A stretch of 64,000 nt of DNA from NCBI GenBank assembly GCA_902602515.1, contig CACKRG010000001.1:62001-126000 (forward strand), read 5' to 3'. Numbering within the stretch: position 1 is the stretch's first letter; each line of letters begins with the position of its first letter. Under the pieces are notes generated by a model, which had not been told where the DNA came from, searched no databases, and saw nothing but the letters and a program-made list of their open reading frames with translations. Shown in pieces: positions 5,743 through 62,735 of the stretch. The DNA comes from an uncultured Alphaproteobacteria bacterium (GTDB lineage Bacteria > Pseudomonadota > Alphaproteobacteria > HIMB59 > GCA-002718135). The translations under genes and the position numbers were made by a program.

Positions 5743-7185
5743 TTATATATTATTAAATTCTTTAATCTTATTGTCTAGAGAAAGCATATAATTGTAATGA
5801 GAATTCCAAAATTCTTGATTTTTTCTTTTCTCAAAATCTTCTAGACTGACACCTTGCTGCTCAACCCAAGTAAAGTAACCCAAATTGAAGATTCTATTTT
5901 TATCTAATTGAGAAAGCTCGAGCATATTATCTGTTGATAATCCTGATAAGTGTCTTCCAAATAATTCAGCACATAAAACCTCATCATAATTATTTTTGAA
6001 TTCATTAATTGTTTTATTTAATTCTGACATGTACAAATCAGCACCATCTGTGGCAACCGTTATAATTGCATCATCGGCATTCAAATCCATGTATTTTGCA
6101 AGTTTTATTGAAGCAATGATATTAGCTATTGCAGAAAAACCAAATTCAGGCAATCTATCTACAAAGTTGGGTTCGAAATTTTTTTTCTCTACTAAAAATT
6201 TTCTTCCAATATCGGTGTTAAAAATCATGTTAAGATTGTTTGTAGCTTGATCAGAAACATCAACTACAAAATCAGTATTCATTACGTTATGAATTAGTGG
6301 AACGTGTTTGTCTCCTATGCCTTGAATATTGTGTTCACCATAGCCACCATGAAGTAGTGTTGGGCATTCTAGAGCTTCTACAACTGCAATTTTTGTTTGA
6401 TATTTGTCTTTAAGATAATCACCAGCAGCCAAGGTACCACTTGATCCTGACGCACTCACATAAAATCTTGGAGTCAAGTTACTATTACCTTTTACTTTTA
6501 AAAAAGATTTTTCAAATGATGGACCTGTCACAGAACGATGAATTCCATAATTATAATATTCATCAAATTGATTTATTATGTCATTATGATTATCTTTTTT
6601 TAACTCATTACAAGCATCATAAATTTCCTTAACATTACTTTCAGTTCCTTTTGTCTTAATAATATTTTTTTTATCTTCCACCCAGTTGTTGAGCCACTCA
6701 AATCTTTCATTGCTCATTCCCTCTGGGAGTATAGCTATACTATTAAGTCCCATAATACGTGAAATAGCAACTCCTCCTCGGCAGTAATTACCTGTTGATG
6801 GCCAAACAGCTTTATGTTTTTCATAATCAAAAGTTCCATTTAATATTCTTGGTAGTAGACATCCATAAGCGGCTAAAACCTTATGAGCTGTTATTAAAGG
6901 AAAATATCGACCCATATTTACTATAATTTTAGCTTTAACTCCGGTAAATTCTGATGGAAGAACAATATGTTCAGGTTCGTCTGCAAAACCTGACTGATCT
7001 TTTTTATTAAACCAGTGGACTCTAAATAAATTTAATGGATTAACATCATTATTATTTATTTTTGTAAGAGAATTTTTTATCTCTTCATTAATATTTACAG
7101 GATTTTGTAATTCTTTAATACTTGGGAGAATAACTCCTTTTGATTTAAAGTAATCTGATGTTTTCTTAATAACAGCTTGACTCAT
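5743..7185 (-). CDS. Fold-type II PLP enzyme (amino acid lyase/dehydratase), function unassigned
   Basis: 480 residues. Fold-type II pyridoxal-phosphate signatures are visible: a probable Schiff-base lysine Lys102 in TAHKVLAAYG, a substrate loop STGNYCRGGVAIS, and a glycine-rich phosphate loop SASGSSGTLAAGDYL. It is longer than threonine dehydratase-like enzymes and close in size to D-serine dehydratase, but I cannot assign a substrate. It follows the eutC-like gene by 3 bases. A beta-elimination or beta-replacement on an operon intermediate is a reasonable inference, nothing more. Confidence 0.75.
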   Translation of the reverse strand: MSQAVIKKTSDYFKSKGVILPSIKELQNPVNINEEIKNSLTKINNNDVNPLNLFRVHWFNKKDQSGFADEPEHIVLPSEFTGVKAKIIVNMGRYFPLITAHKVLAAYGCLLPRILNGTFDYEKHKAVWPSTGNYCRGGVAISRIMGLNSIAILPEGMSNERFEWLNNWVEDKKNIIKTKGTESNVKEIYDACNELKKDNHNDIINQFDEYYNYGIHRSVTGPSFEKSFLKVKGNSNLTPRFYVSASGSSGTLAAGDYLKDKYQTKIAVVEALECPTLLHGGYGEHNIQGIGDKHVPLIHNVMNTDFVVDVSDQATNNLNMIFNTDIGRKFLVEKKNFEPNFVDRLPEFGFSAIANIIASIKLAKYMDLNADDAIITVATDGADLYMSELNKTINEFKNNYDEVLCAELFGRHLSGLSTDNMLELSQLDKNRIFNLGYFTWVEQQGVSLEDFEKRKNQEFWNSHYNYMLSLDNKIKEFNNI

Positions 7186-7188
7186 AAA

Positions 7189-8163
7189 TTAAGTTTTAAT
7201 GCCTAAATTATTTTCATTACAGATATTATACGTATATCTTGCTATTGCAGTATCTTGAACACCTGTCCCTGTCAAATCACATATTGTAATGTCTTCTTTA
7301 TTTTTTCTTCCTAAACTAGGATCAATTATTATACTTCCAAGATCATCAAATTTATGATCAGTCGATATTATGTTTTCCTTAATAGCATGGTGTAATTCAC
7401 CTAAAATAGTTGTTTGTGGTTGATTATCTGGAATATACTTATCACATAGCTTTATCATAGTTGGGTGTAATTCATTTTTTTGTTCTGCGTCAGATCCCAT
7501 AGCTGTTATATGAGTGCCTTTTTTAATCCAATCAAATTCTAAAAGAGGTTTTTTACTCGGAGTCGTTGTTATAATTATATCTGAAGAACTAGCTAAATCC
7601 TTGCAAGACTGGGAAATGTTTATATCAATATTTAAATCTTTTAGACTATCTATAAATTCATCAACTTTAACTTTATCACGAGCCCATAAATTTATTTTGT
7701 TAATTTTTCTTACTAACAAAATGGCTTTTAGTTGTAATCTTGCTTGAATTCCAGCTCCAATAATTCCAAGATTACTAGCATCTTCATTTGATAAGTATTT
7801 TGCAGCTATTGCACCTGCTATTGCAGTTCTAGTATCAGTTAAATATCCCTCATCTAACAAAATAGATTTTATAACTCCTGTCTCAGAATCTAGCAAAACC
7901 ATCATCCCATTACTAGATGGTAATCCTAATTTCGGATTTTCAAAAAAACCTGATGCTATTTTTATTGCAAAACTATCTAAGCCTTCAACATAAGCAGCCT
8001 TAACATCTGATTCACCATGATATTTTTCAATATCAATTCTCATAATTGGAGGCATTACAGTTTTTCCATTAGACAAACTTTTAAAAGCCTCTTCTATAAT
8101 TGGAATTAGATCTTTATTAAGATTTACGTGTTGAATAATATCTTTTTTTTTAAGGATGAGCAT
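7189..8163 (-). CDS. eutC: Ornithine cyclodeaminase/mu-crystallin family protein, EutC-like
   Basis: 324 residues with the OCD/mu-crystallin fold: substrate domain with FAIKIASGFF, conserved DTRTAIAGAIAAKY at 110-123, and a Rossmann GIIGAGIQARLQL at 133-145, so an NAD(P)-dependent cyclodeaminase or imine reductase. Placement directly after an EutB-like and an EutA-like gene matches the eutABC block of hydroxyectoine utilisation clusters. An alternative is delta-1-pyrroline-2-carboxylate reductase paired with the proline-racemase-family gene. ATG at 8163 lies inside the end of eutB (14-base overlap). Confidence 0.75.
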   Translation of the reverse strand: MLILKKKDIIQHVNLNKDLIPIIEEAFKSLSNGKTVMPPIMRIDIEKYHGESDVKAAYVEGLDSFAIKIASGFFENPKLGLPSSNGMMVLLDSETGVIKSILLDEGYLTDTRTAIAGAIAAKYLSNEDASNLGIIGAGIQARLQLKAILLVRKINKINLWARDKVKVDEFIDSLKDLNIDINISQSCKDLASSSDIIITTTPSKKPLLEFDWIKKGTHITAMGSDAEQKNELHPTMIKLCDKYIPDNQPQTTILGELHHAIKENIISTDHKFDDLGSIIIDPSLGRKNKEDITICDLTGTGVQDTAIARYTYNICNENNLGIKT

Positions 8164-9112
8164 TGCTTAAAACTTTATTAAATAATTTAGAGTCAATGTT
8201 ACCCCCACAAATTAAGCAAATTATATTTTTTCCAAGATGAGATGTTAAATTATCTTTAGCAACCATAACACTTGTTGCAGCTGCTCCCTCAGATACTATT
8301 TTATGTTCCATAAAATTCATTCTAATACCCTCTGCTATTTTTTCTTCACTAACTAAAACGAAGTCATCTACATATTCCCTAACAATATCAAATGTATATT
8401 TGTTATCCAAGCCAATACTTCCTCCTAAACAGTCTGCCAAAGTCTCTATTTCATCAACATCTACTGGCTCTCCTTTTTTTAAACTTTCATACATAGATGG
8501 TCCTCTTTCCATAGATACAGCAATGACTTTTGTGTTTGGTTTTTGCAGTTTAATAGCTTTCGCTATTCCAGAAATTAGTCCTCCGCCTGAAGTAGGTATA
8601 ATAACTGTATCAACTTCAGGAAATTGTTCCAACATTTCAAGACCTACAGTTCCTTGGCCAATAATTATATCCTCATCATCAAAGGGGTGAATTAACGTAA
8701 TATTTTTTTCTTTTGAAGTTTGTTTCGCAAATAAATCTGCTTCATCACTATTTTTTCCAATTATCTCAACTTTTGCTCCTAAATTTTCGATAGCTTCTTT
8801 TCTGTAATTGGGCACCATTGATGACATATATATAGTTGATTGAATTCCTAATACTTTTGAAGCATAAGCTACTCCTTTACCATGGTTTCCTGTTGAAACT
8901 GCAATCACACCTTGGTCCTTTTCTTGTTCACTTAAGGAGAGTAATTTATTAACTGCGCCTCTTAATTTGAATGATCCAGTAATTTGAAAATTTTCTAGTT
9001 TAAGTTTTACTTTAGAGTTTTTTGATAAATATTGAGATTGAACTAGCGGAGTATAATTAACATAAGGTAAAATTTTCTTATGAGCATCTTGAATTTGTTG
9101 AAGTGTAATCAA
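8150..9112 (-). CDS. eutB: Threonine dehydratase-like PLP enzyme, EutB-like
   Basis: 320 residues, catalytic domain only (no ACT regulatory domain), as in catabolic serine/threonine dehydratases and the hydroxyectoine-utilisation dehydratase EutB. The PLP lysine is Lys49 in TGSFKLRGA, followed by STGNHGKGVAYA and the phosphate loop SGGGLISG. The start is TTG at 9112, supported by a GAAGG ribosome site six bases upstream; this start aligns with family N-termini. The gene order eutA-eutB-eutC is what favours EutB over a generic threonine dehydratase. Confidence 0.78.
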   Translation of the reverse strand: MITLQQIQDAHKKILPYVNYTPLVQSQYLSKNSKVKLKLENFQITGSFKLRGAVNKLLSLSEQEKDQGVIAVSTGNHGKGVAYASKVLGIQSTIYMSSMVPNYRKEAIENLGAKVEIIGKNSDEADLFAKQTSKEKNITLIHPFDDEDIIIGQGTVGLEMLEQFPEVDTVIIPTSGGGLISGIAKAIKLQKPNTKVIAVSMERGPSMYESLKKGEPVDVDEIETLADCLGGSIGLDNKYTFDIVREYVDDFVLVSEEKIAEGIRMNFMEHKIVSEGAAATSVMVAKDNLTSHLGKNIICLICGGNIDSKLFNKVLSNAHP

Positions 9113-54283: not shown

Positions 54284-54532
54284 ATGAAAGATTTAATTGA
54301 AAATGATGAAATAGTACTTGATACTAGTGGTACAGAATGTCCTATACCGGTACTTAAAGCAAGAAGACTAGCTTCTGAACTAACAAAAGATATTATAGTT
54401 AAAGTTATAGCAACTGACCCTTTAGCAGAGGCAGATTTTGAACATTACTGTGAACAATCAAAATTTGAATACTTAAATTGTATCAAAGATAATGGTAAGA
54501 TTATAATTCGTTTTAAATTTAAAAAAATCTAA
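54284..54532 (+). CDS. tusA: TusA/SirA-family sulfur carrier protein
   Basis: 82 residues. The conserved CPIPVLKARRLA carries the active Cys of the TusA family. In E. coli TusA delivers persulfide sulfur for tRNA thiolation and affects molybdenum cofactor sulfur supply. Divergent from fdsB and convergent with moeA, so a role in sulfuring the formate dehydrogenase cofactor with FdhD is plausible here. Confidence 0.87.
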   Translation: MKDLIENDEIVLDTSGTECPIPVLKARRLASELTKDIIVKVIATDPLAEADFEHYCEQSKFEYLNCIKDNGKIIIRFKFKKI

Positions 54533-54533
54533 T

Positions 54534-55748
54534 TTAGAAAAGAGTATTAAAATCATAAAAATCAAATATATCACCTTTATTAATCTCTGATACATCTTCA
54601 TTTATTTCTATAATACCGTCTGAGTATGAAACTGAACTAATCATACCAGATCCTTGTTTAGGATATTTAAGTGCTATATCTTTTTTGTTTACTCTCTTTT
54701 TGATTATTCTTAACCATTCCATTCTTTGAGTTTTTTTCTTCATACTAAAATTAGCAACAATTTTATTTGAGTTTGGCAGTTTAAAGCCTCCCCCTGATAA
54801 TTTTTCTACTAATGGATTAATCAACATAGCATACAATAATTGTACTGATACTGGATTCCCCGGCAAGCAAATGACATAGCAATTATTTATCCTTCCAACA
54901 GCAATAGGTCTGCCAGGTTTTATTGCAGCTCTCCAAAAAAATAAGTTACCTAAATTTGATAATGCATTAATTAAATGATCTTCATCACCAACTGAAGCAC
55001 CTCCAGCAGTAATAATAATATTATTTTTTTTAGAAGCGCTTAAAAGATTATTTTTAACAATTTTTAAATTATCTTTAAGATTTCCACAATATTTCTTTGA
55101 AATAAATTTTTGATCTAGCAACGAATTAAGCGCAAAAAAATTTGAATTATTTATTTCTGAATATTTTAAATTGTTAGTTGGTTTTCGTAATTCATTCCCA
55201 CTGGTAAAAAAGCCAATTTTAATTTTTTTAAAAACTTTGACTTTTCTTATTCCAGAAGCAGCTATTAAGTTAATGTTTTGTTGATTAATTTTTGATCCTT
55301 TAAATAAGATTTTTTGATTTTTTTTTATATCTTCACCTTTAAGTCTATAATTTTCTCCAAAACTAGGAACTTTTAAAATCTCAATTCTATTTTTATTTAT
55401 TAATGTATTTTCTTGCATAACTACAGTTGAAGAATTTGAAGGCATTTTTGCTCCTGTAAATACTCTAACTGCTTCACCAGATTTTATTTTAATATTTTTT
55501 TTATCACCAGCTGCAATTCTTCTATCACAATAAAAAAATTTTTTTTTATTTAGATCTTTTTTTAATAATGCATAACCATCAACAGCAGAATTATTAAATG
55601 GAGGTAAATTTACTTTGCTTTTCAAATCCTCAAATAAAAACCTTCCTTGAGAATTTTGCAAATCTACGAATTCCGGTTTTATAATTATCGCATTCTGTTT
55701 TTTAAAAAGTTTAACTATTTGCTTTTTTGTTAATGGTAATTTATTCAT
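54534..55748 (-). CDS. moeA: Molybdopterin molybdenumtransferase MoeA
   Basis: 404 residues. Typical blocks: PPFNNSAVDGYAL, RVFTGAKMPSNSSTVVMQEN, FTSGNEL, ITAGGASVGDEDHL and KPGRPIAVGRI. Inserts molybdate (or tungstate) into adenylylated molybdopterin. Overlaps mobB by four bases. Confidence 0.95.
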   Translation of the reverse strand: MNKLPLTKKQIVKLFKKQNAIIIKPEFVDLQNSQGRFLFEDLKSKVNLPPFNNSAVDGYALLKKDLNKKKFFYCDRRIAAGDKKNIKIKSGEAVRVFTGAKMPSNSSTVVMQENTLINKNRIEILKVPSFGENYRLKGEDIKKNQKILFKGSKINQQNINLIAASGIRKVKVFKKIKIGFFTSGNELRKPTNNLKYSEINNSNFFALNSLLDQKFISKKYCGNLKDNLKIVKNNLLSASKKNNIIITAGGASVGDEDHLINALSNLGNLFFWRAAIKPGRPIAVGRINNCYVICLPGNPVSVQLLYAMLINPLVEKLSGGGFKLPNSNKIVANFSMKKKTQRMEWLRIIKKRVNKKDIALKYPKQGSGMISSVSYSDGIIEINEDVSEINKGDIFDFYDFNTLF

Positions 55749-56230
55749 TTTATACCTTTTAAAATAAAGTTAACAATATTATCAATCTCATTTATTTTGA
55801 ATTGTTTTAAATCAGTATCAATTTTTTCTTCTGAAATAACAGCCTGAATATTTGAAATTTTATTAAATAAATAGTTATCATCTCCCTTTTTAATTATCTC
55901 AATTTTTGGATGATTATCATTTTTAAAGCCTTCTACAATAACAAAATCTGTTTCACTTAATTGATTTAACAAATCATTTAAAGATTGCTCTTTAGAATTA
56001 TTAAGTTCTGTAATTTTTACCCATCTCTTTGATGAGCTGATTATTACTTGCGTGGATCCTGACTCTCTATGAATATAACTATCAGTATTTTTATGATCAA
56101 TATCAAATTCATGATGAGCATGCTTAATAGATGCAACAGTATAATTTTTAGTTTTTAATTTATTAATAATTTTACTTGCAAAATATGTCTTTCCAGAATT
56201 CTTCCATCCAACTATGCCTACAATCTTCAT
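55745..56230 (-). CDS. mobB: Molybdopterin-guanine dinucleotide biosynthesis adapter MobB
   Basis: 161 residues. P-loop VGWKNSGKTYFA at 7-18, Walker-B-like VIVEGFKND, and SIKHAHHEFDIDHKNTDS typical of MobB. GTP-binding helper of MobA. Overlaps both moeA and the permease gene by four bases. Confidence 0.93.
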   Translation of the reverse strand: MKIVGIVGWKNSGKTYFASKIINKLKTKNYTVASIKHAHHEFDIDHKNTDSYIHRESGSTQVIISSSKRWVKITELNNSKEQSLNDLLNQLSETDFVIVEGFKNDNHPKIEIIKKGDDNYLFNKISNIQAVISEEKIDTDLKQFKINEIDNIVNFILKGIK

Positions 56231-56919
56231 TTAACTGATCTATTATTTAATAAATAGACAAAAGAATATATAATAATTGTGATTGAAATAAGTACTAGGC
56301 CTAAAGCCATAGCATACTCTAAATTACCCATTCGAGTTTCAAGAGAGATTGCGGTAGTCATTACACGAGTATAATGATCAATGTTTCCACCTACAATCAT
56401 AACAGCCCCTACTTCAGAAATAGCTCTTCCAAAAGCTGATAATAATGTTGTAATTAATAAAAAGTAACTATGATTAAATAAAAGTTTTGCTGAACCCAAA
56501 AAAGGAATATTCAATGATCTGATCTGATCTTTGAATTCAAACCAATTCTTAGAAAATATTTCATGAGATAAGGATACAATAATTGGAAATATTATAATTG
56601 TTTGAGCAATAATCATTGCTGATGGAGTATACAATAGTTGCAAAACTCCAAGAGGACCACCAGAAGCAAAAATAAAATAAACAATCAAACCAACAACTAC
56701 TGGTGGGATACCCATTAACGAGTTTAATAAGACAAGTAAAATTTTTTTTAGAAAAAAATTACGAAGTGCTAAATAATAACCTATTAAAAAACCCAAAATT
56801 GAGGCAATAATTAGTGCTGTAAAACTAACAAATAAAGATAAAAATATTATGTCCCATAACTCTTGATCAAATGTAATGATTAATTGTATGGAATTTATAA
56901 AAATTTCAAATATGTTCAT
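56227..56919 (-). CDS. tupB: Tungstate-type ABC transporter permease
   Basis: 230 residues from ATG at 56919, five to six membrane helices. The TupB-like region FGRAISEVGAVMIVGGNIDH and TRVMTTAISLETRMGN is clear, and is closer to tungstate (TupB) than molybdate (ModB) permeases. A TTG at 56979 would extend it into fdhD and is rejected. No partner ATPase (TupC) or binding protein (TupA) gene is in the window. Clustering with moeA/mobB/fdh points to cofactor metal supply. Confidence 0.85.
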   Translation of the reverse strand: MNIFEIFINSIQLIITFDQELWDIIFLSLFVSFTALIIASILGFLIGYYLALRNFFLKKILLVLLNSLMGIPPVVVGLIVYFIFASGGPLGVLQLLYTPSAMIIAQTIIIFPIIVSLSHEIFSKNWFEFKDQIRSLNIPFLGSAKLLFNHSYFLLITTLLSAFGRAISEVGAVMIVGGNIDHYTRVMTTAISLETRMGNLEYAMALGLVLISITIIIYSFVYLLNNRSVK

Positions 56920-56945
56920 ATAAATTATTAGGTTATTTACAACAT

Positions 56946-57761
56946 ATGAAAAAAAAAGAGAAATATTTAGTATCACCAAATATTAAAGATAAATCCCTTA
57001 TAACTGAGCTAAAAGGCATAGATGAAAATGGTAAACAGATTAAATCAAAAGTTATAAACGAAAAATCACTTACAATATTTCTAAATAATCAAGAAATAGT
57101 GACTTTAATGTCGATTGGTGATCATCCAAAATATCTTGCAATTGGATACTTACTTAATCAAAATATGCTCAAAAAAAATGATAAAATTTCAAAAGTAGAA
57201 GTAGACAAAGAGTTGAATGTTGTTGTTGTTCGGACCAAACGGAAAACTAACTATGAAAATAAATTAAAGAAAAAGATCACAACAAGTGGTTGTGCAATAG
57301 GAACAGTTTTTGGTGATATATATAATGAAATAAAAAAAATTAAATTAAATACAAAGAAAAAAATAAAACATAAATGGATTTATGAAATTTCAAAAAAAAT
57401 AACTTTAACTCCAAGTCTATACCTAGAAGCTGGTGCAATTCATGGCTGCGCTATCATTGAAAATAATAAACCATTAATTTACATGGAGGATGTAGGCAGA
57501 CATAATGCTGTAGATAAAATTGCTGGATATATGTTCTTAAAAAAAGTAAGTTCATCAAATAAGTTTTTTTATACTACAGGTAGATTAACTAGTGAGATGG
57601 TTATAAAGACTATTAAAATGAAAATTCCTATTTTGATATCTAGATCTGGTTTTACTTCATGGGGTGTTGAATTAGCAAAGGAATCAAATTTAACACTAAT
57701 TGGAAGGGCAAAAGGTAAAAAATATTTAGTTTTATCAGGAGAAGAAAGAATTGAATATTAG
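56946..57761 (+). CDS. fdhD: Formate dehydrogenase sulfurtransferase FdhD
   Basis: 271 residues. Conserved EDVGRHNAVDKIAGY and TTGRLTSEMVIKT are present. It transfers sulfur to the bis-PGD metal. The flexible loop that is CxxC in E. coli here reads SGCAIGTVF: Cys116 is kept and the second position is Gly119. Divergent from tupB with only 26 bases between starts; overlaps mobA by 11 bases. Confidence 0.93.
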   Translation: MKKKEKYLVSPNIKDKSLITELKGIDENGKQIKSKVINEKSLTIFLNNQEIVTLMSIGDHPKYLAIGYLLNQNMLKKNDKISKVEVDKELNVVVVRTKRKTNYENKLKKKITTSGCAIGTVFGDIYNEIKKIKLNTKKKIKHKWIYEISKKITLTPSLYLEAGAIHGCAIIENNKPLIYMEDVGRHNAVDKIAGYMFLKKVSSSNKFFYTTGRLTSEMVIKTIKMKIPILISRSGFTSWGVELAKESNLTLIGRAKGKKYLVLSGEERIEY

Positions 57762-58359
57762 TAAAGAAAAAATATTATTTGCAATTTTAGCAGGTGGTCA
57801 ATCTAAAAGATTTGGAGGTGGCTATAAAACTTTTACTAAAATTAGTGGAACAACCATGCTAAATCAAATTATTAAAATATTAAGTAATTTTAGTAATGAT
57901 ATACTTATAAATGCTAATAATTTAGAAGAATTTGAAAGCCTAAATTACAATATTGTAAAAGATAAGTTTGAAGGATTTCTTGGTCCTCTAGCTGGCATTC
58001 ATGCTTCAATTTTATGGATGTTAAATAACAACAAAGAAAAAGAATGGTTGTTTACTGTTCCAAGTGATACACCTTTTTTACCAAGTAACTTACTAGATAA
58101 ATTTTTATCATCATATTCCTCTGGTATAAAAATTCTGATAGCAAGGTCAAATAATAGACATCATCCAGTTATTGCAATGTGGCACGTTTCTCTTTTAAAG
58201 AGTTTAGAAAAAGAATTAAAATTAAAAAATAGTAAAATTATGCTTTGGGTTAAAAAACATAAATATAAATTTGTTGATTTTGATGCTGATCAAGAAAAAA
58301 ATTTTTTTAATATAAACACACAAGTTGACTTAAATGATGCAAAAAAAATAATAATCTAA
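57751..58359 (+). CDS. mobA: Molybdenum cofactor guanylyltransferase MobA
   Basis: 202 residues. Nucleotidyltransferase motif AILAGGQSKRFGGGYK, LGPLAGIHASI and VPSDTPFLP. Adds GMP to molybdopterin to make MGD for formate dehydrogenase. TTG at 57751, with an AGGAG site upstream, overlaps the end of fdhD. Confidence 0.93.
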   Translation: MNISKEKILFAILAGGQSKRFGGGYKTFTKISGTTMLNQIIKILSNFSNDILINANNLEEFESLNYNIVKDKFEGFLGPLAGIHASILWMLNNNKEKEWLFTVPSDTPFLPSNLLDKFLSSYSSGIKILIARSNNRHHPVIAMWHVSLLKSLEKELKLKNSKIMLWVKKHKYKFVDFDADQEKNFFNINTQVDLNDAKKIII

Positions 58360-58404: not shown

Positions 58405-59499
58405 ATGCGATTATCAATATATAAAGTCTTTCCAGGAATTATTTTAAGTTTTATAATTGCATACTCAGGAATATATTTAAGTAGCTTTATTGCTAATGAA
58501 TTATTAAATTTAAGTAAAAGTCCAATTTCTCCAATTATGATTTCAATAATAATTGGTTTATTAATTGGAAATATTTTTAAAATTCCTTCAATATTTTCTG
58601 AAGGAATTAAATTTTCTCTGAAATTTATTCTAAGATTAGGAATTATTTGTCTTGGTATTAGATTAGGTCTTTTGGATATTTTAAAGTTAGGAGTTATTGG
58701 TATACCATTAATTATTGCTTGTATAATTTTTTCAATATTATTAGTTAATTATTTTTGTAAATTTTTAAATGTTCCTTCAAAAATAGGTTCTCTTATAGCT
58801 GTTGGTACAAGTATATGTGGCGCTTCAGCAATAGTTGCAACTAGCCCAGCTATTAACGCTAATAAAGAAGATGTTACATACGCAATTGCTAATATTACCA
58901 TATTTGGGTTAATTGCTATGTTTATATATCCATTTCTAGGACATTATCTATTTAAAGGTGATGAACTATCAATTGGTTTGTTTTTGGGCACATCAATTCA
59001 TGAAACTGCTCAAGTAGCTGGTGCAGGATTAATTTATTCAGAGCAGTTTAGCTCTCCAATTACTATGGATATAGCAACTGTAACTAAACTTGTAAGAAAT
59101 ATTAGTATGATAATTGTTATTCCATTTATAAGTTATTTGTACTTTAAAAATAATATTGATACAGAAAATAAAAAACCGTCAATTCTATCAATGTTTCCTC
59201 TGTTTATTATTGGTTTCATAATTATGGGCTTAATTAGAACAATTGGCGACTACAGTTTTCAAAGCTATAATCTAGCATTTGGTCTATTTATGATAGATCA
59301 ATGGGTTTCAATAATTAATTTTATTAAATTATTAGCAGAATACTCTTTAGCTATAGCAATGGCAGCAGTTGGTATAAGTACAAACTTTGCATCATTAAGA
59401 AGCTTAGGCATAAGGCCATTTTATGTTGGTTTCTCGGCGGCCATAAGTGTTGGATTTGTCAGTTATGTTGGAATTATTATTTTAAATTATTTTATTTAG
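58405..59499 (+). CDS. YeiH/PSE family putative sulfate or anion exporter
   Basis: 364 residues, about ten membrane helices, UPF0324/YeiH family. Conserved GTSICGASAIVATSPAI in the middle and GTSIHETAQVAGAG later, forming the two pseudo-symmetric halves. The transported anion is unproven in the family; sulfate, sulfite or small organosulfonate breakdown products have been suggested. Followed by a TauE-type exporter on the same strand. Confidence 0.85.
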   Translation: MRLSIYKVFPGIILSFIIAYSGIYLSSFIANELLNLSKSPISPIMISIIIGLLIGNIFKIPSIFSEGIKFSLKFILRLGIICLGIRLGLLDILKLGVIGIPLIIACIIFSILLVNYFCKFLNVPSKIGSLIAVGTSICGASAIVATSPAINANKEDVTYAIANITIFGLIAMFIYPFLGHYLFKGDELSIGLFLGTSIHETAQVAGAGLIYSEQFSSPITMDIATVTKLVRNISMIIVIPFISYLYFKNNIDTENKKPSILSMFPLFIIGFIIMGLIRTIGDYSFQSYNLAFGLFMIDQWVSIINFIKLLAEYSLAIAMAAVGISTNFASLRSLGIRPFYVGFSAAISVGFVSYVGIIILNYFI

Positions 59500-59564: not shown

Positions 59565-60479
59565 ATGTCGATTTATCTTCCAATAGCTGAAATGAATGTA
59601 AATATTTTTTTAATTATATTTATTGGAATGAGTATTGGAATTCTTTCAGGTATTTTTGGCGTTGGTGGAGGATTTCTTATGACACCTCTTTTAATTTTTT
59701 TAGGTATACCTCCTGTTGTTGCAGTAGGTTCAGAGGCTCCACATGTTTTGGCAACTTCTGTTTCAGGTGTGATTGCACATTGGAGAAAAAAAAATGTAGA
59801 TTTTAAGATGGGTATTTTTCTATTATGTGGTGGTTTATTAGGATCAACAGTTGGAGTAAATTTATTTAATTATCTTAAGAATTATGGTCAAATAGATTTA
59901 GTTATTCAATTACTATTTGTATTCTTTTTAGGGTTTGTAGGTTTTAGCATGGCTTTTGAGAGTGCTAGAACTACGATAAAGCAGTATAGATCAAGAAGTA
60001 CAAAAAGAAAAAAACTTCATCAACATTCTTGGTTTCACGGTCTTCCATTCAAAGTAAGATTTCACCGTTCAAAATTATACATTAGTGCAATACCACCAAT
60101 TTTAATTGGATTTATAGTTGGTGTAATGTCAGCAATGATGGGAGTCGGAGGTGGTTTTATAATGATACCTGCAATGGTTTATATACTTGGAATGCCGACT
60201 AGTGTTGTTGTTGGGACATCTTTGTTTCAAATTATTTTTGTAACCGCAAATGCTACTTTTTTTCAATCATATATAAATTATAATGTAGATGTTGTGCTTT
60301 CAGCGCTAATGATATTTGGCGGTGTCATAGGTGCACAAATTGGTGTAATATTTGGCTCAAAACTAAAGGCAGAATATTTAAGAGGTATTCTTGCAATTTT
60401 AGTTTTAGCAGTTTGTGGTAAAATTTTTACCGACCTTGTTTTAAAACCAAGTGATTTGTTTTCCTTAGTAGTTCTATAA
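59565..60479 (+). CDS. TauE/SafE family anion exporter
   Basis: 304 residues, about eight membrane helices arranged as two repeats, each beginning GVGGGF (GVGGGFLMTPLLIFLGIPP and GVGGGFIMIPAMVYILGMP). A basic cytoplasmic loop (~residues 140-165) separates them. Family members export sulfite, sulfoacetate or related compounds. Its TAATG overlap with the next gene and the following set form a compact operon. Confidence 0.92.
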   Translation: MSIYLPIAEMNVNIFLIIFIGMSIGILSGIFGVGGGFLMTPLLIFLGIPPVVAVGSEAPHVLATSVSGVIAHWRKKNVDFKMGIFLLCGGLLGSTVGVNLFNYLKNYGQIDLVIQLLFVFFLGFVGFSMAFESARTTIKQYRSRSTKRKKLHQHSWFHGLPFKVRFHRSKLYISAIPPILIGFIVGVMSAMMGVGGGFIMIPAMVYILGMPTSVVVGTSLFQIIFVTANATFFQSYINYNVDVVLSALMIFGGVIGAQIGVIFGSKLKAEYLRGILAILVLAVCGKIFTDLVLKPSDLFSLVVL

Positions 60480-60880
60480 TGATTATTTTAAATTATTTTA
60501 TTAATTTACTAAATTTATTTTTGATATTTCTTTATTTTATTTTTATAAATATAAATTTCTTATTAACAGAATTAGAGCTTTCATTAATTTTTCTAATAAT
60601 CTTAAATTTTGTAATAAAATTATACAATTGGTATTATTATAAAAATTTAAAAGTAATAAATTTAAAAGCAATATCGAAAAAAATTTTTTTTAATGAAAAT
60701 TTTACAAAAATAAGTATTTTTATATTATCAATTTTAATTCCTATTTATATGATTTGGCAAAGAGAAAGTTTAATAATAGATTTATTTGTAGAAAAACTAT
60801 CTTTTTTTCTAGTATTTGTTTTTTCATTATTAGGATTTTATATAGAGTTTTTTATTTTAGAAAGTCAGTCTAAAAAATGA
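60479..60880 (+). CDS. Small membrane protein of unknown function
   Basis: 133 residues, extremely rich in Ile, Leu, Phe and Asn, with about four predicted membrane helices and a short basic loop (~50-75). Start overlaps tauE (TAATG), end overlaps the next gene (ATGA). I do not recognise a family. Its low-complexity, AT-driven composition makes distant homologues hard to judge. Confidence 0.6.
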   Translation: MIILNYFINLLNLFLIFLYFIFININFLLTELELSLIFLIILNFVIKLYNWYYYKNLKVINLKAISKKIFFNENFTKISIFILSILIPIYMIWQRESLIIDLFVEKLSFFLVFVFSLLGFYIEFFILESQSKK

Positions 60881-61623
60881 TTACATCATATAAAAATATA
60901 ATTGTTTTTATTTCTATAATATTCATATTTATCAGTGCTGAAGCAGAAGAAGTTTATTTTGACCTTTCAGAAGATAATATTGAGATTAAAACTGATTTTG
61001 AAGGGAAGGAAATAATTATTTTTGGATTACTGCAAAATGGTCACGAGACTCTATTAACAATAAAAGGGCCGCCAACAAAAATGAAAATTCAAAAAAAAGA
61101 AAGGTACTTTGGTATATGGATTAATAATAAACAAATTATTTACAGTAAAATCCCAACTTTATTTTTTTTATCGTCGTCTTCTAAAGTTGATGATATTTTA
61201 CCAAAATCAATTCAAATAAATGATGACTTAAATTTTGATAAAATATTAAATAATAAAACATTTGATCAAAATTTTATCTTTGAAAATGATCAATCGATTT
61301 GGAATGAGAACTTTGTTAGAATAAAAAAAAGACAGTTATTTTATAAAGAATTTGAAATGAAGACTTTTAAAAATAAATTATTTCAAACTAGTGTTTTTTT
61401 CCCACCAAACACAATTCCTGGTATTTATACTGTTGATATTTATTATATAAAAAACAACACTATTATGAATAAAGATCAAAAAAAAATTATTGTTAAAAAA
61501 ACAGGAATTGGTAGTGATATATATAATTTTGCTAGGAATAATGCTGCTACCTATGGAGTATTTGTAATAATCTTTTCTATATTATGTGGTTTAATTGCTG
61601 CAACATTGTTTAGGAGAGCCTAA
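60877..61623 (+). CDS. Alphaproteobacterial TauE-linked transmembrane protein (Alph_Pro_TM/TIGR02186 type)
   Basis: 248 residues. N-terminal signal peptide (IVFISIIFIFISAEA, likely cut before EEVYFD), a periplasmic beta-rich domain, and one C-terminal membrane helix (VFVIIFSILCGLIAATLF) ending FRRA. Its layout and the GLLQNGHETLLTIKGP region match the alphaproteobacterial family usually found beside TauE/SafE genes. Function unknown; a periplasmic accessory of the exporter is inferred from context. Confidence 0.78.
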   Translation: MITSYKNIIVFISIIFIFISAEAEEVYFDLSEDNIEIKTDFEGKEIIIFGLLQNGHETLLTIKGPPTKMKIQKKERYFGIWINNKQIIYSKIPTLFFLSSSSKVDDILPKSIQINDDLNFDKILNNKTFDQNFIFENDQSIWNENFVRIKKRQLFYKEFEMKTFKNKLFQTSVFFPPNTIPGIYTVDIYYIKNNTIMNKDQKKIIVKKTGIGSDIYNFARNNAATYGVFVIIFSILCGLIAATLFRRA

Positions 61624-62096
61624 TGAAAGAAGAAAGATATATTTTGGTTATTGCTGATAATTCAGAAGAAATGAATATCGCATTAGAATATGCTTGTGCT
61701 AGATCAAAAAAAACTGGTAGAAAAATAATTATTGCTACTTTTATTGAACCTCCTGAGGTCCTTACTACTAAAGGAGTATCAGAAATTATGAAAGAAGAAG
61801 CAAGAGAGGAAGCTGAAGAATTATTAAAAAAAGCTGCTTCTTTTGTTAAGAATAAAATTGGAGAGCATCCCGCACTATCAATAAGAGAGGGTGAAACTAT
61901 GACTGAACTAAAAAAATTAATTGATGAAGAAAAAAATATTAATGTTCTTGTTCTAGCTGCAAAGACTGACCTAAATAATAAAGATCCGGGACCAATAATA
62001 ACTTCTCTTGTTACAAGTGAAATTACTAATTTACGAGTTCCAGTAATGATTGTACCTGGAAATTTTTCAATTGAGCATATTGCACAAATCACTTAA
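61623..62096 (+). CDS. Universal stress protein family protein
   Basis: 157 residues. Single UspA domain: N-terminal strand RYILVIADNSEEMNIALEYA, then an alpha/beta core, and the C-terminal IITSLVTSEITNLRVPVMIV. The G-2x-G-9x-G(S/T) nucleotide loop is not clearly intact, so ATP binding is uncertain. TAATG overlap with the preceding gene ties it to the TauE operon. Confidence 0.82.
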   Translation: MKEERYILVIADNSEEMNIALEYACARSKKTGRKIIIATFIEPPEVLTTKGVSEIMKEEAREEAEELLKKAASFVKNKIGEHPALSIREGETMTELKKLIDEEKNINVLVLAAKTDLNNKDPGPIITSLVTSEITNLRVPVMIVPGNFSIEHIAQIT

Positions 62097-62099
62097 TTA

Positions 62100-62735
62100 A
62101 TGTCTAAAGAAATTGCAAAAATTTTAGTTGAGATAGGTTCAGTTAATTTTGATTTCAAAAAATATTTTACACTTACCTCTGGTTTAAAAAGTCCAGTATA
62201 CGTGGATTGTAGAAAAATAATTTCATTCACAAATGAAAGGGATTTTATAATAGATAAAGCAATTCAATATTTAAAAGAAAATAATATTGATAATGATATA
62301 ATTGCTGGAGGAGAAACTGCTGGTATTCCATATGCAGCATTTCTTTCTCAAAAATTAAAAAAACCAATGGTTTATATTAGAAAGAAACCGAAAGGATTTG
62401 GCATTAACAAACAAATTGAAGGTAAATTTGATTATAAATCTTCTGCACTGCTGGTAGAAGATTTGGCAACCGATGGTGGAAGCAAAATAACCTTTGTTAA
62501 TGCAATGCGCGAAGTTGGATTAAATGTTAAAGATATATTTGTAATATTTTATTATGATATTTTTAATTTTGAAAAATCAGAATTGTATAAACTAAACGTA
62601 AAAATACACTCACTTTGCACTTGGAAAAATATAGTGGAATATATTGAAAGTGAAAAAATATACACAGAAAATGAAATTTCAAATTTAAAAGAATTTTTGA
62701 GAGATCCAGATAAATGGAGAAATAAATATGGATGA
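62100..62735 (+). CDS. pyrE: Orotate phosphoribosyltransferase
   Basis: 211 residues. The PRPP motif reads LLVEDLATDGGSKITFV; substrate loop YIRKKPKGFGINKQIEG; N-terminal FTLTSGLKSPVYVDCR. Converts orotate and PRPP to OMP in pyrimidine synthesis. Three bases after the Usp gene and overlapping the next by eight. Confidence 0.94.
   Translation: MSKEIAKILVEIGSVNFDFKKYFTLTSGLKSPVYVDCRKIISFTNERDFIIDKAIQYLKENNIDNDIIAGGETAGIPYAAFLSQKLKKPMVYIRKKPKGFGINKQIEGKFDYKSSALLVEDLATDGGSKITFVNAMREVGLNVKDIFVIFYYDIFNFEKSELYKLNVKIHSLCTWKNIVEYIESEKIYTENEISNLKEFLRDPDKWRNKYG

What the first reader, a model, noticed from the sequence alone, without database searches (positions are those of the whole stretch)
59565..62096. 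Four-gene TauE module: exporter, small membrane protein, TauE-linked periplasmic protein, Usp
Seen: four genes joined by TAATG or ATGA overlaps, including an unrecognised 133-residue membrane protein and a signal-peptide protein with a C-terminal anchor. Established: the latter family is alphaproteobacterial and TauE-linked but has no known role. Inference: a multi-component anion exporter with a periplasmic accessory and a cytosolic stress sensor.
Basis: partly seen in the sequence, partly recalled or inferred. Interest (0 to 1): 0.58.

Follow-up and report, generated by a model that had tools for sequence, protein, structure and literature searches.

The report
Sulfite exporter with lost-oxidase remnant
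Four overlapping genes of a marine bacterium encode a likely sulfite exporter (TauE), a partner protein of unknown role found beside it in most alphaproteobacteria sampled, a small stress-family protein, and a 133-residue membrane protein that turns out to be the surviving half of a lost sulfite-oxidising enzyme's membrane anchor, which gives the unknown partner a testable role.

Summary
The four genes and their overlaps are real. Three results change the reading. (1) The "unrecognised" 133-aa protein is not a new exporter subunit: it is the C-terminal four-helix half of a SoeC/DmsC-type anchor. Two relatives of the same genus carry TauE-SoeA-SoeB-SoeC-PF09608-Usp in the same place; a third has AprMBA there. 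The window's lineage lacks SoeA, SoeB and the first half of SoeC. The remaining half-gene is open in every copy aligned and under purifying selection, so probably still a protein. (2) The PF09608 (TIGR02186) protein and this TauE subfamily come as a pair: both in 250 of 385 alphaproteobacterial genomes, neither in 132, one alone in 3. In a SAR11-like family the PF09608 membrane helix is fused to the end of TauE. (3) The pair sits beside sulfite enzymes: SoeABC in 23 of 96 SoeA-bearing genomes, AprMBA and SuyB-like genes in about 20 of 30 SAR11-like loci. The window genome encodes Xsc, which releases sulfite, but no SoeA or AprA was found. Best reading: a two-part TauE/PF09608 transporter that clears sulfite, here working without its usual oxidase. 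Substrate and direction are inferred. The Usp role is unproven.

The parts
58405..59499 (+). YeiH-family (PF03601) putative anion exporter, upstream neighbour; between mobA and TauE in the window and in L122-L127, absent from that slot in L128, L129, L130, L132
   Evidence: PF03601 2.4e-69; tblastn of named loci
59565..60479 (+). TauE/SafE-family transporter, 304 aa, 8 hydrophobic segments; member of a subfamily that is co-inherited with PF09608
   Evidence: PF01925 2.4e-53; subfamily and co-occurrence; hydropathy
60479..60880 (+). 133-aa, four-helix membrane protein: C-terminal half of a SoeC/DmsC-type anchor (equivalent to SoeC residues 163-315 with an internal loop missing)
   Evidence: intact TauE-SoeA-SoeB-SoeC-PF09608-Usp in L111 and L128; hhalign prob 95.5, E 1.4e-8; alignment; codon test
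60877..61623 (+). PF09608 (Alph_Pro_TM) protein: signal peptide, two beta-rich domains (about residues 28-209), C-terminal membrane helix (residues 223-247)
   Evidence: PF09608 171.6 bits against cut-off 24.5; AlphaFold2 model mean pLDDT 92.3
61543..61617 (+). codons of the C-terminal membrane helix of the PF09608 protein, the part that is fused to TauE in a SAR11-like family
   Evidence: helix 223-247; tail-to-helix profile match prob 96.9, E 1.6e-10, controls
61623..62096 (+). Usp-family protein, 157 aa, without the usual G..G(x9)G[ST] pattern
   Evidence: PF00582 39.6 bits against cut-off 24; motif scan
62100..62735 (+). pyrE, 3 bases downstream, probably co-transcribed, not part of the system
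   Evidence: NF001729 256.9 bits; order kept in genus and sister family
54284..54532 (+). TusA-like sulfur carrier; with moeA, mobB, modB, fdhD and mobA (54534-58359) it forms the neighbouring molybdenum/formate dehydrogenase block
   Evidence: ORF list; TusA, FdhD and MobA kept in L122-L125, L127, L128, L130 and L132; TusA, MoeA, MobB, ModB names from sequence, recalled

Best explanation
TauE and the PF09608 protein are two parts of one inner-membrane transporter. TauE is the channel; the PF09608 protein packs its single C-terminal helix against TauE and holds a two-domain beta-rich module in the periplasm. The unit moves sulfite (or the sulfate made from it) out of the cytoplasm, as relief for cells that release sulfite from sulfonates (Xsc, SuyAB) and often oxidise it with SoeABC or AprMBA. 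In the window's lineage the locus once read TauE-SoeA-SoeB-SoeC-PF09608-Usp. A deletion removed SoeA, SoeB and the first half of SoeC, and left a four-helix C-terminal half of SoeC that still starts at the TAATG junction after TauE and still overlaps the PF09608 start. That half is kept as a protein. With the oxidase gone, the window organism, which still has Xsc, depends on export. Shown: gene order, homology of the half-SoeC, co-inheritance, fusion of the helix, neighbourhood with sulfite enzymes, Xsc present and SoeA/AprA not found. Inferred: substrate, direction, physical contact, role of the periplasmic module, of the half-SoeC and of Usp.
For: Co-inheritance: of 385 alphaproteobacterial genomes, both in 250, TauE subfamily alone in 2, PF09608 alone in 1, neither in 132. 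Fusion: TauE of a SAR11-like family is about 350-375 aa with a tail that matches the PF09608 membrane helix (Pfam 23.3 and 21.9 bits; profile-profile prob 96.9, E 1.6e-10; score 60.6 against 14.3 reversed and at most 19.2 in 30 column shuffles); 75 of 79 genomes of that family match, 74 of them over about the full length. Sulfite context: SoeA within 1.5 kb of the pair in 23 of 96 SoeA genomes from 11 families, about 0.3 expected if placed at random; the pair is in 92 of those 96 against 158 of the other 289. In 30 SAR11-like loci AprA lies next door in 20, a SuyB-like gene in 21, YeiH in 8; one cluster reads AprM-AprB-AprA-orf116-TauE-YeiH-SuyB-SuyA-Xsc (Xsc 839.6 bits against 676.4). Ancestral locus: L111 and L128 intact; L132 has AprMBA in the same slot (AprA 1010.3 bits against 641.75, AprB 190.6 against 135.65). 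Window genome: Xsc 943.6 bits against 676.4, no true SoeA or AprA. Half-SoeC: codon model with free omega lnL -2269.34 against -2319.44 with omega 1; all 16 copies aligned open. Literature: PMC12636525 (passage read) states that in SAR11 AprAB likely removes sulfite made by SuyAB and Xsc.
Against: No transport assay. 158 of 250 genomes with the pair have no SoeA at the threshold used, so SoeABC is not an obligate partner, and many of the 18 class contexts that I read show no sulfur genes close by. TauE-family members can import: a Pseudomonas homologue restores sulfate uptake (PMC11535334, passages read). The window genome is 86.5% complete, so absence of SoeA/AprA is not proven, and it holds one PF00174 protein that looks like MsrP rather than a sulfite dehydrogenase (by eye, from an orthologue). 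In two named loci (L137, L146) a related TauE has no PF09608 gene and sits by an oxalyl-CoA-decarboxylase-like gene (by eye). The SAR11-like fusion lacks the periplasmic module, so that module is dispensable there. The half-SoeC has a higher dN/dS (median 0.354) than TauE (0.03) or PF09608 (0.19).
Confidence: 0.58

Rival explanations
1. The TauE/PF09608 unit carries sulfate (export of the oxidation product, or uptake), not sulfite.
For: A TauE-family protein restores sulfate uptake in an E. coli cysA mutant (PMC11535334, passages read). SoeABC and AprMBA neighbours make sulfate in the end.
Against: The pair is kept in the window genome although no SoeA or AprA was found there, while the sulfite-releasing Xsc is present. 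A biosynthetic need for uptake is not suggested by the neighbours read.
Confidence: 0.22
2. The PF09608 protein is a general envelope or assembly factor of alphaproteobacteria, and its link to sulfur genes is incidental.
For: It occurs in 251 of 385 genomes, 158 of the 250 pair genomes have no SoeA hit, and its predicted fold gives only generic beta-sandwich matches.
Against: It is co-inherited one-to-one with one TauE subfamily, its helix is fused to that TauE in one family, and SoeA adjacency recurs in 11 families.
Confidence: 0.1
3. The 133-aa half-SoeC has no function of its own; the reading frame is kept only because its end carries the start region of the PF09608 gene.
For: The ORF overlaps the PF09608 start by 4 bases in the window and SoeC overlaps it by 20 bases in L111; it evolves fast (median dN/dS 0.354) and outside the genus it is missing.
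Against: Omega of 1 is rejected by 50 log-likelihood units on 23 unique copies; four hydrophobic segments and conserved residues (PIYM, a glutamate near the C end) persist. Coupling would need only the last codons.
Confidence: 0.33
4. One reading: a four-part exporter in which the 133-aa protein is an exporter subunit and Usp a stress sensor.
For: Conserved order and overlaps within the genus.
Against: The 133-aa protein derives from a redox-enzyme anchor and is absent from the sister family and the rest of the class examined. Usp is not always next to the pair.
Confidence: 0.08

Closest known systems
TauE (DUF81) sulfite exporter of Cupriavidus necator (Weinitschke et al. 2007, seen only as a citation and reference entry in PMC5840216)
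   Same: PF01925 transporter linked to C2-sulfonate metabolism; proposed sulfite export
   Different: Here TauE belongs to an alphaproteobacterial subfamily with a dedicated PF09608 partner; no such partner is described in the passages that I read
TauE-family sulfate importer TK06_RS10770 (PMC11535334, passages read)
   Same: Same family
   Different: Shown to restore sulfate uptake; sulfate-assimilation context, not sulfite-oxidation context
SoeABC sulfite dehydrogenase (NrfD/DmsC-type anchor SoeC; review PMC8076601, passages read)
   Same: G020 and L128 carry SoeA, SoeB and a DmsC-family SoeC between TauE and PF09608; the 133-aa protein aligns with SoeC helices 5-8
   Different: The window has only the second four-helix bundle; the bundle with the quinone site (helices 1-4) and the catalytic subunits are missing
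AprMBA sulfite oxidation with SuyAB and Xsc in SAR11 (PMC12636525, PMC2211403, passages read)
   Same: Same enzymes next to TauE in the SAR11-like loci and, for AprMBA, in the L132 slot
   Different: The TauE fusion with the PF09608 helix is not mentioned in the passages that I read
PF09608 / TIGR02186 (Alph_Pro_TM, no assigned role)
   Same: The window protein is a PF09608 member
   Different: It scores 118.4 bits against the TIGR02186 equivalog cut-off of 255.25, so it lies outside that tighter set

Membership tests
TauE/SafE (PF01925) | Pfam score over the curated cut-off | tested here: met
   181.7 bits against 32.6
TauE/SafE (PF01925) | sulfite export activity | not testable with these tools
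   needs a transport or tolerance assay
Alph_Pro_TM (PF09608) | Pfam score over the curated cut-off | tested here: met
   171.6 bits against 24.5
TIGR02186 (hypothetical equivalog) | score over the equivalog cut-off | tested here: not met
   118.4 bits against 255.25
Usp (PF00582) | Pfam score over the curated cut-off | tested here: met
   39.6 bits against 24
ATP-binding Usp (motif recalled) | G..G(x9)G[ST] nucleotide-binding pattern | tested here: not met
   absent from the window Usp and from the L032 Usp
SoeC/DmsC anchor (133-aa protein) | sequence homology to SoeC/DmsC | tested here: met
   hhalign prob 95.5, E 1.4e-8 over 124 columns; 49% identity, 8e-14, to the G020 protein without composition correction
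SoeC/DmsC anchor (133-aa protein) | Pfam DmsC (PF04976) or NrfD match of its own | tested here: not met
   no family at E 0.1; the full G020 protein matches PF04976 at 2.5e-22
SoeC/DmsC anchor (133-aa protein) | first four-helix bundle with the quinone site | tested here: not met
   the protein starts at about the equivalent of SoeC residue 163; location of the site from PMC8076601 (passages read)
SoeABC (G020, L128, class loci) | molybdopterin subunit without an export signal, 4Fe-4S subunit, DmsC/NrfD-type anchor in one operon | tested here: met
   SoeA of G020 starts MNPFKNQKEIVKTS, no twin arginine seen in its first 60 residues; Fer4 and DmsC Pfam hits; order
SoeABC (G020, L128, class loci) | close identity to a characterised SoeABC | not tested
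   no reference sequence was at hand; NCBIfam has no SoeA model among the hits
AprBA (L132, L221) | equivalog scores over cut-off for AprA and AprB | tested here: met
   TIGR02061 1010.3 against 641.75 and TIGR02060 190.6 against 135.65 for L132; L221 AprA and AprB named by similarity only

The most novel reading that the evidence does not exclude
TauE and PF09608 form an obligate two-subunit sulfite transporter in which the PF09608 helix is a ninth membrane helix of the channel, and in this genus the surviving half of SoeC has been recruited as a third membrane subunit of that transporter after the loss of the sulfite dehydrogenase: an enzyme anchor turned transporter part.
Probability: 0.22. 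Interest if true: 0.78.

Novelty: new variant of a known kind. Interest (0 to 1): 0.6.

Why it matters
PF09608 is in 251 of 385 alphaproteobacterial genomes sampled and has no assigned role in the libraries used. The fusion with TauE and the sulfite-enzyme neighbours turn it into a testable claim: it is the partner subunit of a sulfite transporter. Sulfite is toxic and is the inorganic product of taurine, sulfoacetaldehyde and sulfolactate breakdown in abundant ocean bacteria, so how it leaves the cell matters for marine sulfur budgets. The locus also records an evolutionary swap: enzyme (SoeABC or AprMBA) in some relatives, exporter only in others.

Tried and rejected
Rejected: the 133-aa protein as an orphan or a new exporter subunit (homology to SoeC). 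Rejected: TauE here as a formate-dehydrogenase accessory because of the Mo/formate block upstream. In the wider class the pair sits with or without such genes, and that block is present in the genus whatever lies in the slot.

Led nowhere: sequence search of PF09608 and TauE profiles against solved structures; Foldseek and VIA-align of the PF09608 model gave only generic beta-sandwich folds (best Foldseek E 5.2e-4, best Z 9.5 over 94 residues, rmsd 2.1), no function; papers on TIGR02186 and PF09608 (none on the family); papers with SoeABC and TauE (4 listed, none opened); TauE with SAR11 (6 listed, none opened); the AEGEAN-169 paper PMC10308909 has none of the words sulfite, sulfonate, taurine, soe, apr in its main text. 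PDB search of SoeA found thiosulfate reductase as the nearest solved chain. Plasmid search of SoeA gave 13 records named only 'molybdopterin oxidoreductase' or unannotated.

Not settled: whether the SoeC truncation happened once or several times. By TauE identity G011 (truncated) and G020 (intact) are close (95.7%), but the tree of the short region is poorly resolved, so repeated loss and regain by recombination both fit.

Rows dropped: L160 left out of the PF09608 alignment for length, and L124-L127 as near-duplicates (63 of 68 found loci used, plus the window); L242 left out of the tail alignment because of a stop in the stretch taken (29 of 30); dN/dS used 103 pairs of genomes with all five genes and TauE dS under 1.2. 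In the SoeA adjacency count, TauE/PF09608 places were not listed for 12 of the 96 genomes; they count as not adjacent. The genomes were hand-picked for diversity, not sampled.
Full report
OBSERVATION. The window lies in a 1.43-Mb draft genome, 86.5% complete. The four ORFs and their overlaps are as described. Pfam names three of them (TauE, Alph_Pro_TM, Usp) and gives nothing for the 133-aa protein. Upstream lie a YeiH-family gene, mobA, fdhD and a molybdenum/formate block; downstream pyrE, a cytidylyltransferase-like gene and a PNPOx gene.

ORDER ACROSS ALPHAPROTEOBACTERIA. PF09608 is found in 33 of 41 relatives and in 251 of 385 genomes of the class, and in none of 14 control genomes. In loci L001-L090 TauE lies directly before PF09608 in 86 of 90. 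The exceptions are L003, where other genes lie between, and three SAR11-like loci. In 80 named loci it is 74 of 80. The exceptions are two with genes between (L128, L132), two at contig ends (L174, L179), and two without PF09608 (L137, L146). Usp follows PF09608 in 60 of 90 and in 25 of 76. In many Rhodobacteraceae loci a related Usp lies about 7-9 kb upstream.

CO-INHERITANCE. A profile of this TauE subfamily (A2) finds 252 of the same 385 genomes at E below 1e-90, with a clear gap to weaker TauE proteins (1e-63 and above). Both genes are in 250, TauE alone in G215 and G335, PF09608 alone in G380, neither in 132. G335 belongs to the SAR11-like family in which only the helix remains.

THE 133-AA PROTEIN. 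It is found only in the window's genus. In genome G020 the place after TauE holds a 975-aa molybdopterin oxidoreductase, a 246-aa 4Fe-4S protein and a 328-aa DmsC-family anchor, followed by PF09608, Usp and pyrE, in synteny with the window. A second genome (L128, isolate AG-447-L18) has the same order. These three genes are SoeABC-like: no twin-arginine signal is seen at the start of the large subunit, and the anchor is DmsC/NrfD-type. The window's 133-aa protein aligns with residues 163-315 of that anchor, helices 5-8, with the loop between helices missing (hhalign prob 95.5, E 1.4e-8). In G020 and L128 TauE and SoeA share one base (8366; 10915), as TauE and the 133-aa gene do in the window. 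So the remnant starts at the old junction and ends at the old overlap with PF09608. In L130 and L132 an ORF of this kind is also present. In L132 the slot additionally holds an APS-kinase-like gene and, on the other strand, AprA, AprB and a membrane protein at the AprM place.

IS THE REMNANT STILL A PROTEIN? All 16 copies aligned are open. Median dN/dS is 0.354, against 0.03 for TauE, 0.19 for PF09608, 0.06 for Usp and 0.11 for PyrE. A codon model with free omega beats omega 1 by 50 log units on 23 unique copies. It is under weak but real purifying selection. Selection on the DNA for the start of the next gene could account for the last codons only.

THE FUSION. 75 of 79 genomes of the family have this TauE. 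The tail profile of 29 sequences matches the PF09608 profile at prob 96.9, E 1.6e-10, over the juxtamembrane stretch and the helix. Score 60.6 against the end of PF09608, 14.3 when reversed, at most 19.2 in 30 column shuffles. A helix that is separate in most genomes and fused in another argues for contact between the two proteins.

SULFITE NEIGHBOURS. SoeA (E up to 1e-150) is in 96 of 385 genomes. In 23 of them, from 11 families, it lies 0.5-1.4 kb from TauE or PF09608, in the cases read as TauE-PF09608-Usp-SoeABC (L093 and L104; L135 and L150; L093 and L150 are the same genome) or divergent (L103). The pair is in 92 of 96 SoeA genomes and in 158 of the other 289 (Fisher p 6e-16; relatedness is not corrected for). 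In 30 SAR11-like loci AprA is adjacent in 20, a SuyB-like gene in 21, an unnamed 116-aa ORF in 22 and YeiH in 8. One locus continues into SuyA and Xsc (SuyA/SuyB names recalled, Pfam gives GD_AH domains for the larger one). PMC12636525 states that SAR11 AprAB likely removes sulfite made by SuyAB and Xsc (passage read).

THE WINDOW ORGANISM. True Xsc is present in its genome (943.6 bits against 676.4) and in 18 of 41 relatives over the cut-off, all of the genus. No true SoeA (only the formate dehydrogenase matched weakly) and no AprA were found. In the genus SoeA occurs in G020 and G001, AprA in G011 only, and none of the 16 sister-family genomes has a match at the level of a true homologue. 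The single PF00174 protein of the window genome has an orthologue that looks like MsrP (by eye). Among the ten genus loci read, YeiH sits before TauE only where no SoeABC or AprMBA lies in the slot (L122-L127 with YeiH; L128, L129, L130, L132 without), though L129 and L130 have neither.

STRUCTURE. The PF09608 model (64 rows, mean pLDDT 92.3) shows a signal helix, two beta-rich domains, connecting helices and a C-terminal membrane helix. Fold comparison gave only generic Ig-like matches, so the role of the periplasmic module is open.

READING. The simplest account is a two-part transporter, TauE plus PF09608, that clears sulfite next to the enzymes that make or oxidise it. The window holds the version that has lost its oxidase. 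Substrate and direction rest on context: a TauE homologue that takes up sulfate is known (PMC11535334), and 158 pair genomes show no SoeA.

Noticed in passing
L132:10563-15241: In isolate AG-447-I04 an APS-kinase-like gene and AprMBA (opposite strand) sit between TauE and the SoeC remnant: a different sulfite-oxidising enzyme in the same slot.
   Followed up: partly
L219 (G001:C14), 6838-8438: In G001 both SoeC and the PF09608 gene are broken by frameshifts while SoeA, SoeB, TauE and Usp are intact: decay of just these two, or a sequencing fault.
   Followed up: no
L221:3210-3560, L132:11054-11404, L220:5029-5397: A 116-122-aa protein (L221 copy without Pfam or NCBIfam match) follows AprA in three genomes read and lies near the fused TauE in 22 of 30 SAR11-like loci: a likely unnamed partner of AprBA.
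   Followed up: partly
L137:10001-10888, L146:3831-4748: A TauE of the same subfamily without a PF09608 gene, beside a GntR-type regulator and an oxalyl-CoA-decarboxylase-like gene (named by eye): perhaps another anion.
   Followed up: no
window 58405-59499: A YeiH-family putative exporter directly before TauE in the window and six relatives, absent from that slot in four relatives; also next to the fused TauE in 8 of 30 SAR11-like loci.
   Followed up: partly
window 56227-56979: A ModB-like molybdate permease gene overlaps mobB; I saw no ModA or ModC gene next to it in the ORF list.
   Followed up: no
L098, L140, L141, L155, L171: Two TauE genes of this family in tandem before PF09608.
   Followed up: no
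L088:1620-2048, L090:1620-2048: In two SAR11-like genomes a small membrane protein gene (DUF3429 in L088) overlaps the end of the fused TauE gene.
   Followed up: no
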